Positions 377-11,684 of a DNA stretch of 11,989 nucleotides are shown here, piece after piece (position 1 is the first letter of the stretch; the number at the start of each line of letters is the position of its first letter). The position numbers and the translations under genes were made by a program. The DNA comes from Lachnospiraceae bacterium (GTDB lineage: Bacteria > Bacillota > Clostridia > Lachnospirales > Lachnospiraceae). The stretch is from positions 1-11,989 of the forward strand of contig JAGCCY010000301.1 in assembly GCA_017651385.1 (NCBI GenBank). Reading direction: 5' to 3'. The notes under the pieces were generated by a model that searched no databases, was not told the DNA's origin, and was given only the letters and a program-made list of their open reading frames with translations.

Positions 377-1333
377 ATGGAACCTTTGATCATCATTTCC
401 GGCCCGACGGCCGCAGGAAAAACCGATATATCCGTAAAACTTGCAAAGAAAATAAACGGAGAGATAATCTCCGCCGATTCCATGCAGGTTTATAAAGGTA
501 TGGATATAGGCTCCGCAAAGATAAGCGCTCAGGAAATGCAGGGAGTCAAGCATCATCTTATCGATATACTCGATCCCTTCGATGAATTCAACGCCGCATT
601 GTTTAAAGAATATGCGCTTGAAGCGATAAAGGATATCCGTTCAAGAGGTCATATACCCATTGTCGTGGGCGGCACCGGCTTTTATATCCAGGGTCTTTTA
701 TATGATGTGGATTTTGATAAAAGCCGGGGTGATATCCCGAAGATCAGGGAAAAGCTTGAGGAAGACCTTAAAACACACGGAAATCTTTATCTGTACGAAA
801 GACTTAAGGCCGTCGATCCGGAAAGTGCGGAGATAATACATTCAAACAATGTAAAAAGAATGATCCGTGCTCTTGAATTCTACGAAGAGACCGGTGAAAA
901 GTTAAGTGCTCACAACGATAAGATGCACCAGAACATTTCCCCTTACAATTTTGCTTATTTTGTGTTAACGTTTGACAGGCAGAAATTATATGAAAGAATT
1001 GACGCGCGTGTCGATAAAATGATAAATGACGGCCTTGTCAGTGAAGTAAAAGCCCTTAAAGACAAAGGACTGAGCCGGGCCAATACTTCAATGCTCGGCA
1101 TAGGATACAAGGAGATCCTCGATCATCTCGACGGAAAGTATTCCTTCGAAGAAGCTGTCGATATCATAAAAAAAGAGACAAGACATTTCGCCAAAAGACA
1201 GATGACCTGGTTCAGGCGCGAAAAAGAGGTCATATTTATCGATAAAGACGATTATGAGGATGACGAAGCGATCCTTGAATATATGCTTAATGTGTTAAAC
1301 GAAAGGAAGATAGTCTTATGGCCGAAAGCATAA
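377..1333 (+). CDS. miaA: tRNA dimethylallyltransferase MiaA
   Basis: MiaA transfers a dimethylallyl group from DMAPP to N6 of A37 in tRNAs that read UNN codons, the first step toward i6A/ms2i6A. The 318 residues match the usual family length. The P-loop-like GPTAAGKT is at residues 9-16, DSMQVY at 34-39 carries the conserved Asp34 (general base in the family), and GGTGFYIQG and QMTWFRR follow further on. The ATG comes immediately after the mutL TGA with no gap, so initiation probably depends on coupling; the preceding A-rich stretch gives only a weak Shine-Dalgarno. A mutL-miaA pair is common in Firmicutes. The 3' end overlaps the next gene by 16 bases. The protein looks intact and cytoplasmic. 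Confidence 0.97.
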   Translation: MEPLIIISGPTAAGKTDISVKLAKKINGEIISADSMQVYKGMDIGSAKISAQEMQGVKHHLIDILDPFDEFNAALFKEYALEAIKDIRSRGHIPIVVGGTGFYIQGLLYDVDFDKSRGDIPKIREKLEEDLKTHGNLYLYERLKAVDPESAEIIHSNNVKRMIRALEFYEETGEKLSAHNDKMHQNISPYNFAYFVLTFDRQKLYERIDARVDKMINDGLVSEVKALKDKGLSRANTSMLGIGYKEILDHLDGKYSFEEAVDIIKKETRHFAKRQMTWFRREKEVIFIDKDDYEDDEAILEYMLNVLNERKIVLWPKA

Positions 1334-2603
1334 ATCAGTTTTACAAAGAAGCGGGTATTGATGAAGATGTATACCTGTTGGGCGAAAAGATACTTTTTAA
1401 ACTTAAAGATAAATTTGCAAGGATCGATGAGATAAGCGAGATCAATCAGCTTAAAGTCTTATATGCTTTTAAGGAATGCAATGTAAGCGAAGCCTGCCTG
1501 AACGGTACCACCGGATACGGATACAACGATCTTGGCAGGGAAACTCTTGAAAAAGTGTACGCCAAAGTCTTTAAGACCGAAGATGCTTTAGTGCGTCCGC
1601 AGATAACATGCGGGACCCATGCGCTCGCACTTGCCCTTATGAGCAACCTGCGCCCGGGCGATGAACTTTTAAGCCCCGTAGGAAAACCGTACGATACCAT
1701 GGAAGAAGTGATCGGTATAAGGCCTTCCGTGGGGTCTTTAAAAGAATACGGCATTTCATACAGACAGGTCGATCTTCTCGAAAACGATGCGTTTGATTAC
1801 GAAGGCATCAGGAATGCGATAAACGAAAAAACAAAACTCGTGACCATCCAAAGATCAAAAGGCTACCAGACCAGGAAATCATTTTCCGTTGATGAGATCG
1901 CTCATCTTATAAGCTATATAAAGTCCGTAAAGCCCGAAGTTAAAGTCATGGTCGACAACTGTTACGGTGAATTCACCGAGGTCCACGAACCATCCGAATA
2001 CGGTGCCGATATGGTAGTCGGTTCTTTGATCAAAAATCCCGGAGGCGGGCTTGCTCCGATAGGCGGATACATCGCAGGCACAAAAGAATGTGTTGAAAAT
2101 GCCGCATACAGGCTTACAAGCCCGGGACTCGGAAGAGAAGTCGGAGCTTCCCTCAATGCTTTAAGAAGCTTGTATCAGGGCTTTTCCTTGCACCGACAGT
2201 AACCGCATCCGCTTTAAAAGGCGCTTTGTTTGCTGCGGGAATATACGAACTTTTAGGTTTTAAATGCGTCCCTTCCATGCATGAGACCAGACACGATATC
2301 ATTCAGGCCGTGACATTTGAAAATCCGGATATGCTCATCGCTTTTTGCGAAGGCATACAGTCCGCTTCACCGGTCGATGCATTTGTAAGACCCGAACCAT
2401 CAGATATGCCCGGATACGATTCAAAGGTCATAATGGCAGCGGGTACGTTTGTATCAGGCGCAAGTATAGAATTATCCGCAGACGGACCCTTAAGATCGCC
2501 CTATGCCGCATATTTTCAGGGCGGGATCACATGGCCGCACGTTAAATACGGCATATTGTCCACTGTTCAGCAGCTTAAAAATAAACACCTTATAACTGTT
2601 TAA
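1318..2603 (+). pseudogene. PLP-dependent methionine gamma-lyase / aluminium-resistance family protein (YnbB-like), frameshifted
   Basis: This is a fold-type I PLP enzyme of the Cys/Met-metabolism superfamily, often annotated as aluminium resistance protein; its true reaction is poorly established. The first part (1318-2202, 294 residues) holds GTHALALAL, the cofactor-binding Asp in VDNCYGEF (Asp213) and the likely Schiff-base lysine in SLIKNPGGG (Lys239). It then ends abruptly in an unrelated tail after YQG. The missing C-terminal domain continues in another frame from about 2184 to 2603 (LAPTVTASALKGALFAAGIY and onward). Restoring one base near 2182-2187 gives about 428 residues, the normal family length. 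The start overlaps miaA by 16 bases, and a miaA-ynbB neighbourhood is also known in Bacillus. The break is either a true mutation or a sequencing/assembly error; no canonical slippery site is seen. Confidence 0.85.
2179..2190 (+). other. One-base deletion site in the YnbB-like gene
   Basis: Frame 0 reads Gly-Phe-Ser-Leu-His-Arg-Gln-stop here. One added base (a C before, or a T within, the TTTT at 2182-2185) gives Gly-Leu/Phe-Phe-Leu-Ala-Pro-Thr, which is what the family has at this place. The short T run followed by CC is a plausible slip site for replication or sequencing. The two frames overlap without any intervening stop, so nothing else is damaged. Confidence 0.85.
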
Positions 2604-7972: not shown

Positions 7973-8653
7973 ATGAATTCATTGGTAACCATCAAAAGCA
8001 TTCCGAACGGGATAAAAGTTTTGCTCGATCCCGACTGCGATTTTTCTCTTATAATCGAAGAACTCGGAAAAAAGTTCAGAGATTCAAAGAACTTCTTTAA
8101 AGGCGGAAGGCTTTGCGTAACATTCAGCGGAAGGGTTTTAAGCGAAGTCGAAGAAAACACTTTAGTCGGAACAATGGAAACAAACGGCGAATTTACCGTC
8201 TTGTATCTTGTTTCTGAATCCGGCAACGAAGAAGACCGCATCACAAAGGCTCTTGCCGGTTCAAGGCTTAAAGATGATGATATAAACGGCTTCGGCGCAG
8301 TATACAGAGGAAGCGTGTTCAAAGGAGAGCATCTTCAGTTTTCAACCGGAGTCCTTATCCTCGGAGACGTAGAACCCGGTGCGTTGATAAAGGCTTCGGG
8401 AAACGTCATTATACTTGGCGGCCTTTACGGAAGTGTCAACATTGAATGCGAATCCGGTACTCCCGGCTTTGTATTTGCACTTGAATTAAGCCCGGAAAGG
8501 ATCAGGATATGCGATGCAAGATACTATTCGCCCGATAAGCCCAGGTGGTCGATAAAACCCAAATATCAGGGAAAGATCGCATATCTGTCAGAAGGTAAAG
8601 TGATCGCAAAAGAAGCAACGGCGCAGAATCTGAAGGAAATGCTAAAAGGTTAG
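7973..8653 (+). CDS. minC: Septum site-determining protein MinC (MinDE-less locus)
   Basis: MinC inhibits FtsZ polymerisation and normally acts with MinD at the membrane. The 226 residues show a weakly conserved N-terminal FtsZ-inhibiting domain (about 1-80) and a C-terminal beta-helix with the typical GDVEPGALIKASGNVIILG followed by GGLYGSVNIE. The MinD-contact motif RSGQ of well-studied MinC aligns here with FKGE (residues 116-119), so the key arginine and glutamine are missing. In related clostridia minC is followed by minD and minE; here rodA follows after seven bases. The ATG comes one base after the PBP2 stop, with GGAG at 7963-7966. Family assignment is good; whether it still controls division placement is open. 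Confidence 0.87.
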   Translation: MNSLVTIKSIPNGIKVLLDPDCDFSLIIEELGKKFRDSKNFFKGGRLCVTFSGRVLSEVEENTLVGTMETNGEFTVLYLVSESGNEEDRITKALAGSRLKDDDINGFGAVYRGSVFKGEHLQFSTGVLILGDVEPGALIKASGNVIILGGLYGSVNIECESGTPGFVFALELSPERIRICDARYYSPDKPRWSIKPKYQGKIAYLSEGKVIAKEATAQNLKEMLKG

Positions 8654-8660
8654 ATCTGAA

Positions 8661-9788
8661 ATGTTTAAAAATCTTCATATAAAAGATTATGATTTTAAAT
8701 TAATACTTTTTATCATCGCGATAAATACGATAGGTATCCTGGCGATAGGAAGCGCCAATCCCGATAACCGTTCAAGGCAGCTGGCCGGAGCGGTCATGGG
8801 GCTGTTTTTGATGATCGTAATATCGTTGTTTGACTATGCGATCATCCTTAAGTTTTACTGGGTATTGTACGCTGTGGATCTCGCTCTTTTGTTAGCGGTA
8901 CGTATTGCAGGTAACACCGCAAATAACTCACAGCGCTGGTTTACCATAGCGGGAATACGTTTTCAGCCTTCCGAGACGGCCAAAATATTATTGATTATTT
9001 TTTTCGCACAGTTTATTATGAAATATAAGGAAAAGATAAATTCGTTAAAGTTTCTGTTTTGCTTTTTCTTTTTGGCTGCGATCCCGCTATATCTTATATA
9101 TGACCAGCCGGATCTGTCTACGACGATCGTATGTTTCATTATCATCTGTACATTGCTTCTCGTGGGCGGCATAAGCTGGAAATATATACTTGCGGCATTT
9201 GCCGTCGCTGTTCCTGCCATAATTGTATTTTTCAGTATTATCCTTAAGGAAGGACAGACTTTGATAGACGGCTATCAGAGAAAAAGAATTTTATCGTTTA
9301 TCTATCCGGAAAAATACGTTGATGATGCTTACCAGCAGATGAATTCGGTCATAGCAATAGGATCGGGTCAGCTCTGGGGCAAAGGATATAACAATAACGT
9401 GATCAGTTCACTTAAAAACGGCAATTATATCATCATGCCGGACACCGATTTCATTTTTGCCGTCATAGGCGAAGAGCTTGGTTTTGTGGGTACGATCACT
9501 GTGATCTTTCTTTTGTTTTTGATCGTTTTCGAGTGTTTCTTTATAGCAAGACGCGCAAGAGACCTCGCAGGCAGGATAATATGTGTCGGAATGGGTACAC
9601 TTATCGGTATTCAGACGTTTTTTAATGTGGGAGTTACAACGTTCATTTTACCGAATACGGGGCTTACGCTTCCGTTTGTCAGTTACGGACTTACGTCTTT
9701 GTTAAGTCTTTATATGGGTATGGGCGTGGTTATTAATGTACGGTTCAGGTCGGGACTGCCGGACCGTGAGAAGAGAGAGGTGTTTTAA
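8661..9788 (+). CDS. rodA: SEDS-family peptidoglycan glycosyltransferase RodA
   Basis: RodA is an integral membrane polymerase that joins lipid II into glycan strands as partner of the class B PBP encoded two genes upstream. The 375 residues are almost all membrane helices (about ten). Family signatures are QRWFTIAGIRFQPSETAK (with conserved Trp93), YDQPDLSTTI, GSGQLWGKGYNN, DTDFIFAVIGEELGF and the terminal LPFVSYGLTSLL. The acidic pair Asp221/Asp222 in YPEKYVDDAYQQMNS sits in the extracellular loop where SEDS enzymes keep their essential Asp. RodA is preferred over FtsW because of its place in the mre cluster. The ribosome binding site is weak (AAAGG at 8645-8649, 11 bases before ATG), so coupling to minC is likely. 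Confidence 0.93.
   Translation: MFKNLHIKDYDFKLILFIIAINTIGILAIGSANPDNRSRQLAGAVMGLFLMIVISLFDYAIILKFYWVLYAVDLALLLAVRIAGNTANNSQRWFTIAGIRFQPSETAKILLIIFFAQFIMKYKEKINSLKFLFCFFFLAAIPLYLIYDQPDLSTTIVCFIIICTLLLVGGISWKYILAAFAVAVPAIIVFFSIILKEGQTLIDGYQRKRILSFIYPEKYVDDAYQQMNSVIAIGSGQLWGKGYNNNVISSLKNGNYIIMPDTDFIFAVIGEELGFVGTITVIFLLFLIVFECFFIARRARDLAGRIICVGMGTLIGIQTFFNVGVTTFILPNTGLTLPFVSYGLTSLLSLYMGMGVVINVRFRSGLPDREKREVF
9776..9780 (+). promoter_or_regulatory. Ribosome binding site deciding the TTG start of mgsA
   Basis: AGAGG within a GAGAGAGG run ends eight bases before the TTG at 9789. The TTG directly follows the rodA stop and gives the family-typical N-terminus (MNIALIAHD), so no later start is credible. 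Confidence 0.7.
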
Positions 9789-11264: not shown

Positions 11265-11684
11265 ATGGTTCAGTTAATTGTAGGCGAAAAGGGTAAAGGA
11301 AAGACCAAGCACCTGCTCGAAAAAGTAAATAACGAAGTTAAAACAGTATCGGGTAACATCGTTTATTTGGACAGAAGCACCAAGCACATGTATGAGTTAA
11401 ATAACAAAGTGCGTCTTATCGATGTATCCGATTATTTTATTGATTCCAGTAATGAATTTTTAGGTTATATAGCAGGCATCATCGCTTCGGATCACGATCT
11501 TCAGCAAATGTATTTTGACGGATTTTTGGCTATGTCGGGTACCAAACTTGAAGATTTTGAGGCAGCGGTTGCCAAACTTGAGAAGTATTCTGAGAAGTAT
11601 GGGGTTGACTTTATTCTTTCCGTTTCGGTAAACGAAAAGGACCTTCCGGAAACACTTAAATCGAAGATAATCATTTCTTTATAA
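11265..11684 (+). CDS. Small P-loop NTP-binding protein of unknown function
   Basis: I do not recognise a characterised family. The 139 residues start with a strand and Walker A motif GEKGKGKT at 7-14 (LIVGEKGKGKTKHLL), so nucleotide binding is likely. A hydrophobic strand starting with Asp (VDFILSVSV, about 114-122) may serve as a Walker B-like element, but it has no acidic residue at its end. YLDRSTKHMYELNNKVRLIDV in the middle looks like a folded core element. There are no cysteines, membrane helices or signal peptide, so it should be cytoplasmic. It has its own strong promoter, strong ribosome binding site and terminator, making a one-gene unit. Similar short proteins, as I recall, occur as hypothetical ATPases in related clostridia. 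A role in pilus retraction is sometimes guessed for such proteins but nothing here supports it. Confidence 0.8.
   Translation: MVQLIVGEKGKGKTKHLLEKVNNEVKTVSGNIVYLDRSTKHMYELNNKVRLIDVSDYFIDSSNEFLGYIAGIIASDHDLQQMYFDGFLAMSGTKLEDFEAAVAKLEKYSEKYGVDFILSVSVNEKDLPETLKSKIIISL

What the first reader, a model, noticed from the sequence alone, without database searches (positions are those of the whole stretch)
7973..8660. Orphan minC: minD and minE are missing and the MinD-binding motif has changed
Seen: minC is followed seven bases later by rodA, with no minD or minE remnant. The segment aligning with the RSGQ motif of MinC reads FKGE (residues 116-119). Known: RSGQ in the MinC C-terminal domain is needed for MinD binding in E. 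coli, and many clostridia have minC-minD-minE-rodA in this place. Inference: minDE were lost from this lineage or moved, and MinC has been freed from MinD recognition. It could inhibit FtsZ alone, use another recruiter, or have taken a role in the elongation complex encoded around it. Two independent signs pointing the same way make this the strongest observation in the window.
Basis: partly seen in the sequence, partly recalled or inferred. Interest (0 to 1): 0.75.

Follow-up and report, generated by a model that had tools for sequence, protein, structure and literature searches.

The report
Orphan MinC after minDE loss
A bacterium of the family Lachnospiraceae has kept the cell-division inhibitor MinC but lost its two usual partners, MinD and MinE; related lineages did the same several times, which opens the question of what MinC does on its own.

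Summary
minC (7973-8653) is followed 7 nt later by rodA, and FKGE (residues 116-119) lies where MinC has RSGQ. The minDE loss is real: in the 18 held genomes of the genus there is no MinE and no MinD over cut-off, while MinC is kept in 16 of 18 (6 of 6 genomes >=90% complete). Among 200 genera of the family, 19 have MinC without a separate MinD or MinE, all as pbp2-minC-rodA. A tree needs 12 changes for this state (at least 10 on supported branches).

The motif is not a second sign. RSGQ is also missing from 54 of 113 MinCs in minCDE genomes and from 13 of 13 minDE-keepers in the window's clade, whose MinD contact residues are unchanged. Motif erosion therefore began before minDE was lost. The place beside rodA is ancestral (107 of 113 minCDE loci).

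Orphan MinC is under purifying selection (dN/dS 0-0.07 in the four closest pairs), but its C-terminal domain evolves faster than in minCDE lineages. Best reading: a MinD-independent FtsZ antagonist acting through its N-terminal domain. A substitute recruiter is not excluded. New variant of a known kind.

The parts
7973..8653 (+). minC, orphan MinC homologue (226 aa)
   Evidence: Pfam MinC_N and MinC_C over cut-off
7985..8200 (+). MinC N-terminal domain (residues 5-76), the FtsZ-inhibiting domain in known MinC
   Evidence: Pfam PF22642/PF05209; lysine of the E. coli K9 column conserved in 19 of 19 orphan MinC
8303..8596 (+). MinC C-terminal beta-helix domain (residues 111-208)
   Evidence: Pfam PF03775; Foldseek best hits 1hf2 and 4v02
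8318..8329 (+). FKGE (residues 116-119) at the RSGQ position
8654..8660 (+). 7-nt minC-rodA junction where minD-minE lie in relatives
8661..9788 (+). rodA
   Evidence: PF01098 268.7 bits
5149..7971 (+). pbp2 (class B penicillin-binding protein) immediately upstream
   Evidence: PF00905 and PF03717
2672..5159 (+). mreB, mreC, mreD
   Evidence: PF06723, PF04085, PF04093
9789..10184 (+). mgsA-like gene (MGS domain), right-hand end of the conserved neighbourhood
   Evidence: PF02142; synteny

Best explanation
The gene is a diverged but working MinC whose partners minD and minE were lost cleanly from an ancestral pbp2-minC-minD-minE-rodA operon in an ancestor of the genus (inferred from comparison). 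It is one of at least ten such events in the family (on the tree used). It is not a relic: it is intact across the genus and under purifying selection (shown). Most likely it acts as a MinD-independent antagonist of FtsZ assembly (inferred). Its N-terminal domain would cap or shorten FtsZ filaments; its C-terminal domain would be kept mainly for dimerisation and perhaps for FtsZ-tail contact; and its dose would follow the elongation operon, so it would set a general threshold for Z-ring assembly rather than mark the poles by oscillation. The RSGQ position drifted because selection on it had already relaxed in this clade before minDE were lost (order of events inferred from sister lineages).
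For: Genus: MinC 16 of 18, MinE 0 of 18, MinD over cut-off 0 of 18; minC open and pbp2-minC-rodA adjacent in 15 of 16 species loci, the 16th (L211) having pbp2-minC and then a contig end. Family: 19 of 200 genera with MinC but no separate MinD or MinE, 14 of them >=90% complete, 19 of 19 pbp2-minC-rodA. Tree: 12 changes, at least 10 forced by supported branches; in a 30-row subset the AU test rejects one orphan clade, p 1.75e-5. Selection: the four MinC pairs with dS<1 have dN/dS 0, 0.048, 0.049, 0.073, against 0.023-0.065 for RodA and 0.019-0.039 for PBP2. Constraint: terminal-branch CTD/RodA 1.95 (19 orphans) vs 0.79 (102 minCDE), p 6.5e-8; NTD/RodA 1.72 vs 1.23, p 0.0035; CTD/NTD 1.14 vs 0.62, p 8.8e-5. 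The N-domain lysine (E. coli K9 column) is kept in 19 of 19. Literature passages: MinC-N alone inhibits division when overexpressed, and full MinC without MinD needs 25-50-fold overexpression (PMC6803595).
Against: No functional data. In E. coli MinC without MinD is weak at normal dose, so a soluble MinC may do little unless expression is high; expression is unknown. The N-domain also sped up in orphans (1.72 vs 1.23), and in one orphan (G135) both N-domain models fall just below cut-off (21.9 vs 27.3, 26.8 vs 27). Over all MinC pairs with dS<2 the median dN/dS is 0.23 (23 pairs) against 0.088 for PBP2 (27) and 0.053 for RodA (6), so MinC is the least constrained of the three. Within the window's clade the domain contrast is modest (CTD/NTD 1.10 vs 0.77, p 0.038; CTD/RodA 1.93 vs 1.48, p 0.051; NTD/RodA 1.90 vs 1.76, p 0.48), and the window's own MinC sped up in both domains (NTD 0.91, CTD 0.83, RodA 0.42). 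37 of 200 genera have none of the three genes over cut-off, so orphan MinC may be one step towards total loss. CTD branch lengths depend on alignment of divergent sequence.
Confidence: 0.56

Rival explanations
1. A substitute recruiter has replaced MinD: a membrane or polar protein, perhaps of the elongation machinery, binds MinC through its C-terminal domain and brings it to the membrane.
For: Artificial membrane tethering of MinC bypasses MinD in E. coli (PMC6803595 passages), and the prophage protein DicB inhibits division through MinC (PMC4967827 abstract). The C-domain is kept in all 19 orphans and has residues invariant in 11 aligned genus sequences (among them G131, P135, G149, G150, Y152, G153, W192, P196, K197, K201). 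mreB lies between the metgamma-like gene and mreC in 16 of 17 orphan loci against 51 of 73 minCDE loci (p 0.06). In G091 MinC is fused to a MinD-like domain with a degenerate P-loop.
Against: No conserved replacement motif: the RSGQ position reads nine different tetrapeptides in 16 species of the genus. The C-domain evolves faster, not slower, in orphans. Its tail resembles that of minDE-keeping relatives, so is not new. The C-terminal tail is no more amphipathic than in minCDE relatives (median moment 0.497 vs 0.506). The mreB contrast is not significant and ignores phylogeny.
Confidence: 0.25
2. A decaying remnant on the way to complete loss of the Min system.
For: In 18 of 20 sampled loci of genomes with none of the three genes over cut-off (20 of 37 such genomes), pbp2 abuts rodA (gaps 0-83 nt) with no min gene recognised. 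Orphan MinC branches are longer than those of minCDE lineages in both domains, and MinC dN/dS over more distant pairs is higher than that of PBP2 or RodA.
Against: dN/dS near zero in the four closest pairs; open reading frame in 16 of 16 species of the genus with the gene, and MinC present in 6 of 6 genomes >=90% complete; the window's MinC is 38-57% identical to those of ten other genus loci, so it has lasted long.
Confidence: 0.14
3. The flagellar MinD paralogue FlhG, or a ParA, serves as membrane partner for MinC.
For: The genus carries MinD-like ATPases (best TIGR01968 hit 83-110 bits per genome, 18 of 18); in the window's genome the best one lies beside an flhF-like gene.
Against: None passes the MinD cut-off, and none was seen near minC. 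FlhG also occurs in bacteria with complete Min systems (recalled), so it gives no specific link. Binding was not tested.
Confidence: 0.04
4. minDE are present but missed because the genome is an incomplete MAG.
For: The window's genome is 72.09% complete.
Against: minDE are absent from the locus itself with both flanks assembled; 0 of 18 MinE and 0 of 18 MinD over cut-off in the genus, six genomes >=90% complete.
Confidence: 0.01

Closest known systems
MinC of the MinCDE oscillator (E. coli type; also C. difficile)
   Same: Both MinC domains, beta-helix C-domain (Foldseek best hits 1hf2 E 4e-11, 4v02 E 1.5e-6); same operon place as minC in minCDE relatives.
   Different: No MinD, no MinE, no RSGQ.
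MinCD with MinJ/DivIVA (B. subtilis type)
   Same: MinC without MinE; a short C-terminal helix is predicted (residues 217-225), as PMC5548801 proposes for Gram-positive MinC (passages).
   Different: B. subtilis keeps MinD; here no MinD was found. MinJ and DivIVA were not searched.
Total Min loss in the same family
   Same: Same operon with a clean gap between pbp2 and rodA (18 of 20 sampled).
   Different: minC is also gone there.
Reciprocal state: minDE without minC in the same family (23 of 200 over cut-off)
   Same: Partial loss of the same three-gene block at the same place.
   Different: minC lost, minDE kept; in 3 of 3 sampled loci (3 of 23) pbp2 is followed directly by minD.

Membership tests
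MinC protein family | N-terminal MinC_N domain over Pfam cut-off | tested here: met
   39.3 vs 27.3 bits; PF22642 39.5 vs 27
MinC protein family | C-terminal MinC_C domain over Pfam cut-off | tested here: met
   53.5 vs 33.2 bits
MinC protein family | Two-domain fold with beta-helix C-domain | tested here: met
   AF2 pLDDT 79.3, pTM 0.56; the six PDB chains at E<=0.001 are all MinC; whole-chain TM only 0.38-0.47 for 1hf2, C-domain TM 0.73-0.81 by target length for 4v02, 5xdm, 6riq
MinC protein family | NCBIfam equivalog cut-off TIGR01222 (95.25 bits) | tested here: not met
   40.1 bits. Control: 7 of 8 relatives also fail (58-74 bits), four of these 7 being minDE-keepers of the same clade; only G099 passes at 97.4. 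So it is filed as a diverged MinC homologue, not as an NCBIfam equivalog
MinC protein family | RSGQ MinD-binding motif | tested here: not met
   FKGE; but RSGQ is also missing in 54 of 113 MinCs of minCDE genomes, so not defining in this family
MinC protein family | Inhibits FtsZ assembly | not testable with these tools
   needs biochemistry
MinCDE / MinCD system | MinD encoded in the genome | tested here: not met
   0 over cut-off in G000 and 0 of 18 in the genus
MinCDE / MinCD system | MinE encoded in the genome | tested here: not met
   0 in G000 and 0 of 18 in the genus

The most novel reading that the evidence does not exclude
In at least ten lineages of one bacterial family MinC has been released from MinD and kept as a stand-alone division regulator, with constraint eased most on its MinD-facing domain and less on its FtsZ-facing one. 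Position control by oscillation would there have been replaced by dose or partner control tied to the elongation operon, and MinC and MinDE would each be able to persist without the other.
Probability: 0.3. Interest if true: 0.72.

Novelty: new variant of a known kind. Interest (0 to 1): 0.5.

Why it matters
MinC is treated as an effector that needs MinD at normal dose. Natural, repeatedly evolved orphan MinC under selection makes the question 'what does MinC do without MinD' testable in real lineages, and the reciprocal minDE-without-minC lineages test the proposal that MinDE patterns have uses beyond MinC. It also warns that loss of RSGQ should not be read as loss of MinD binding.

Tried and rejected
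RSGQ loss as evidence of release: rejected because of the sister lineages. Position beside rodA as evidence of an elongation role: rejected, ancestral place. A C-terminal tail of the type W..[KR]PK...KIAY as a new orphan feature: rejected, similar in minDE-keepers. A new membrane anchor in the C-terminal tail: no difference in hydrophobic moment. mreB retention linked to orphan MinC: p 0.06, not corrected for phylogeny. MinD change compensating for RSGQ loss: none seen at the contact residues of minCDE genomes. Paper searches (open-licence PMC library only) showed no paper on orphan MinC in the titles and abstract starts listed; PMC4905992 says in its abstract that clostridia carry 'various combinations' of Min homologues. 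mostly returned philosophy papers ('mind-independent') and microbiota papers. The search for related loci gave only three Lachnospiraceae MAG loci, so no cultured orphan species is named here.

Rows moved or dropped: by cut-off alone 21 of 200 genomes are MinC-only. I moved G040 (MinD in two pieces on two contigs, one next to minC) and G066 (MinD-like 140 bits next to minC) to the minCD class, leaving 19; one of these, G091, carries a fused MinD-like domain, so 18 are strictly orphan. Five of 156 rows were left out of the 151-row tree for too few columns, and 12 of 136 MinCs out of the branch-length test. Of 37 genomes with none of the genes over cut-off 20 loci were read, and of 23 minDE-only genomes 3. 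A first branch-length run failed in part and was redone.

Full report
What is there. The window is a whole 11,989-base contig of a 1.9-Mb MAG, 72.09% complete. The three relatives returned with names are Lachnospiraceae MAGs, isolates Tb.RUG.242, RUI050 and Horse_feces261 (that RUG and RUI stand for rumen is recalled). The contig carries miaA, a methionine gamma-lyase-like gene, mreBCD, pbp2, minC, rodA, mgsA and more, all on + (the names miaA and gamma-lyase are my reading). minC starts 1 nt after the end of pbp2 and ends 7 nt before rodA. The protein has both MinC domains over Pfam cut-offs, and a predicted fold whose six PDB matches at E<=0.001 are all MinC chains. The observation therefore stands.

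Loss of minDE is real. The MAG gives no MinE match and no MinD over cut-off. Because it is incomplete I searched all 18 held genomes of the genus: MinE 0 of 18, MinD over cut-off 0 of 18, MinC 16 of 18, and 6 of 6 among genomes >=90% complete. Of the 16 species loci with minC, 15 show pbp2-minC-rodA; in L211 the contig ends after minC.

How common it is. In 200 genera of the family (own genome included), counts over cut-off are MinC 136, MinD 141, MinE 137. By cut-off alone: minCDE 113, MinC only 21, minDE without minC 23, minCD 2, D only 3, E only 1, none 37. After reading the loci, G040 and G066 move to minCD, giving 19 orphans; one of them (G091) is a MinC fused to a MinD-like domain. Fourteen of the 19 genomes are >=90% complete. 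In 19 of 19, minC lies between pbp2 and rodA; in 107 of 113 minCDE genomes the order is minC-minD-minE-rodA. The other six are three contig ends (G092, G095, G199) and three loci showing only minCDE genes of this set (G003, G079, G159). In 18 of 20 sampled genomes with none of the three over cut-off, pbp2 abuts rodA; the other two (G005, G043) hold a lone diverged MinD-like gene there. In three of three sampled minDE-only genomes (of 23), pbp2 is followed by minD. The three-gene block thus breaks down in several ways at one fixed place. In a sample of 196 genomes of the class (G000 included; the search asked for at least 90% completeness), MinC without MinD over cut-off occurs in 4 of 102 MinC genomes: the window's own and three of one genus in another family. 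The state is therefore mainly a feature of this family, as far as sampled.

Independent losses. A tree of 151 genomes from eight neighbouring proteins (no min genes) needs 12 changes for the orphan state, at least 10 on supported branches (FastTree, SH-like support). In a 30-genome subset around the window an AU test rejects a single orphan clade, p 1.75e-5 (quick IQ-TREE, LG+G4, group chosen after seeing the first tree). Change counts do not give direction; loss is inferred because the full block sits at the same place across the family.

The motif. RSGQ is exact in 59 of 113 minCDE MinCs, 0 of 4 minCD and 0 of 19 orphans. That looks like tracking, but phylogeny explains much of it. In the window's 26-row clade the 13 minDE-keepers read REGQ, RDGQ, KDGF, SGGE, KNGQ, SGKK, SNGE, KNGQ, KNHQ, KKGQ, KKGQ, KDGQ and KNKE, none of them RSGQ; the next branch out, G170, has RSGQ. 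The MinD residues that contact RSGQ in E. coli are S148, D154 and I159 (PMC6803595 passage). In the family's MinDs these are S, D and L in 58 of 58 RSGQ genomes, in 13 of 13 of the clade's minDE-keepers, and S 53, D 54, L 53 of the 54 non-RSGQ minCDE genomes. The exceptions gather in the three minCD genomes whose MinD was compared. So a normal MinD coexists with changed motifs, and FKGE says nothing by itself about release. In eight independent pairs that differ in minDE, RSGQ follows in 1.9 on average and goes the other way in none; this is too few to reach significance. Inside the genus the position reads nine different tetrapeptides in 16 species, so no new motif has replaced RSGQ.

Is orphan MinC still working? 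The four closest pairs in the genus (dS<1) have dN/dS 0, 0.048, 0.049 and 0.073, in the range of RodA (0.023-0.065) and slightly above PBP2 (0.019-0.039) of the same loci. Over all pairs with dS<2 the medians are MinC 0.23 (23 pairs), PBP2 0.088 (27) and RodA 0.053 (6), with saturating dS, so MinC is constrained but less than its neighbours. On a fixed topology, orphan C-domains have terminal branches 1.95 times those of RodA, against 0.79 in minCDE genomes (p 6.5e-8); N-domains 1.72 against 1.23 (p 0.0035); the C/N ratio is 1.14 against 0.62 (p 8.8e-5) (19 and 102 genomes). Within the window's clade the contrast is weaker (C/N p 0.038, C/RodA p 0.051, N/RodA p 0.48), because minDE-keepers there already evolve fast in the C-domain (C/RodA 1.48 against 0.79 family-wide). 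Two minCD genomes look like intermediates: G044 and G066 have no MinE, and MinDs of 246 and 228 aa whose tails lack the aromatic and basic stretch seen in relatives (reading it as loss of the membrane-targeting helix is inference). The N-domain lysine in the E. coli K9 column is present in 19 of 19 orphans and 96% of minCDE MinCs. B. subtilis K12A almost abolishes FtsZ binding (PMC11938149, section 6); that K12 equals E. coli K9 is recalled, not tested. Of three other orphans scanned, two pass both N-domain models and one (G135) falls just below both.

Mechanism. Shown: conserved gene, partners not found, selection, C-domain eased more than N-domain. Inferred: FtsZ antagonism without MinD, with dose set by the operon. 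Literature support is indirect (PMC6803595 passages): MinC-N alone inhibits when overexpressed; MinC without MinD needs 25-50-fold overexpression; membrane tethering bypasses MinD. The last two points cut both ways: they make a weak soluble inhibitor possible, and they make a substitute recruiter attractive. I put the recruiter at 0.25.

Membership. It is a MinC homologue by both domains and fold. It fails the NCBIfam equivalog cut-off (40.1 vs 95.25), as do 7 of 8 relatives tested, four of which keep minDE. It is not part of a MinCDE or MinCD system, because MinD and MinE were searched for and not found.

Verdict. Interest 0.5: repeated natural orphan MinC under selection is unexpected and testable, but mechanism is unproven and 'various combinations' of Min genes in clostridia were already noted (PMC4905992 abstract).

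Noticed in passing
window 1318-2603: The methionine gamma-lyase-like gene is split into two ORFs (294 and 125 aa) in different frames around 2180-2226, while relatives have one ORF of about 430 aa; frameshift or assembly error.
   Followed up: partly
window 11265-11684: A 139-aa protein beginning with a P-loop-like string (GEKGKGKT) has no Pfam match at E 0.01, but a relative lies near mgsA in many of the family's loci, with or without minDE.
   Followed up: partly
L075:7968-9467 (G091): MinC fused to a MinD-like domain (TIGR01968 81 bits) whose P-loop reads GRNVGNTS, so probably a dead ATPase: a MinC-pseudo-MinD fusion in the place of minC-minD.
   Followed up: partly
L268, L269, L270 (G002, G032, G158): Reciprocal state: minD-minE directly after pbp2 with no minC; 23 of 200 genera have minDE but no MinC over cut-off.
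   Followed up: partly
L085:9330-10070 (G044), L072:2151-2837 (G066): MinD of 246 and 228 aa beside minC, no MinE, tail without the usual membrane-helix-like end, and changes at the MinC-contact residues: possible intermediates of loss.
   Followed up: partly
L255:8170-8988 (G005), L264:8080-8955 (G043): Lone diverged MinD-like ATPases (TIGR01968 132 and 114 bits, below cut-off) between pbp2 and rodA, no minC or minE recognised.
   Followed up: partly
family loci L065-L199: No mreB was recognised between the metgamma-like gene and mreC in 22 of 73 minCDE loci that show both flanking genes, so mreB loss or divergence is frequent.
   Followed up: no
G322, G362, G379 (another family of the class): MinC_C domains in frames of 360-453 aa in one genus with no MinD over cut-off; a different architecture or a second orphan lineage.
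   Followed up: no
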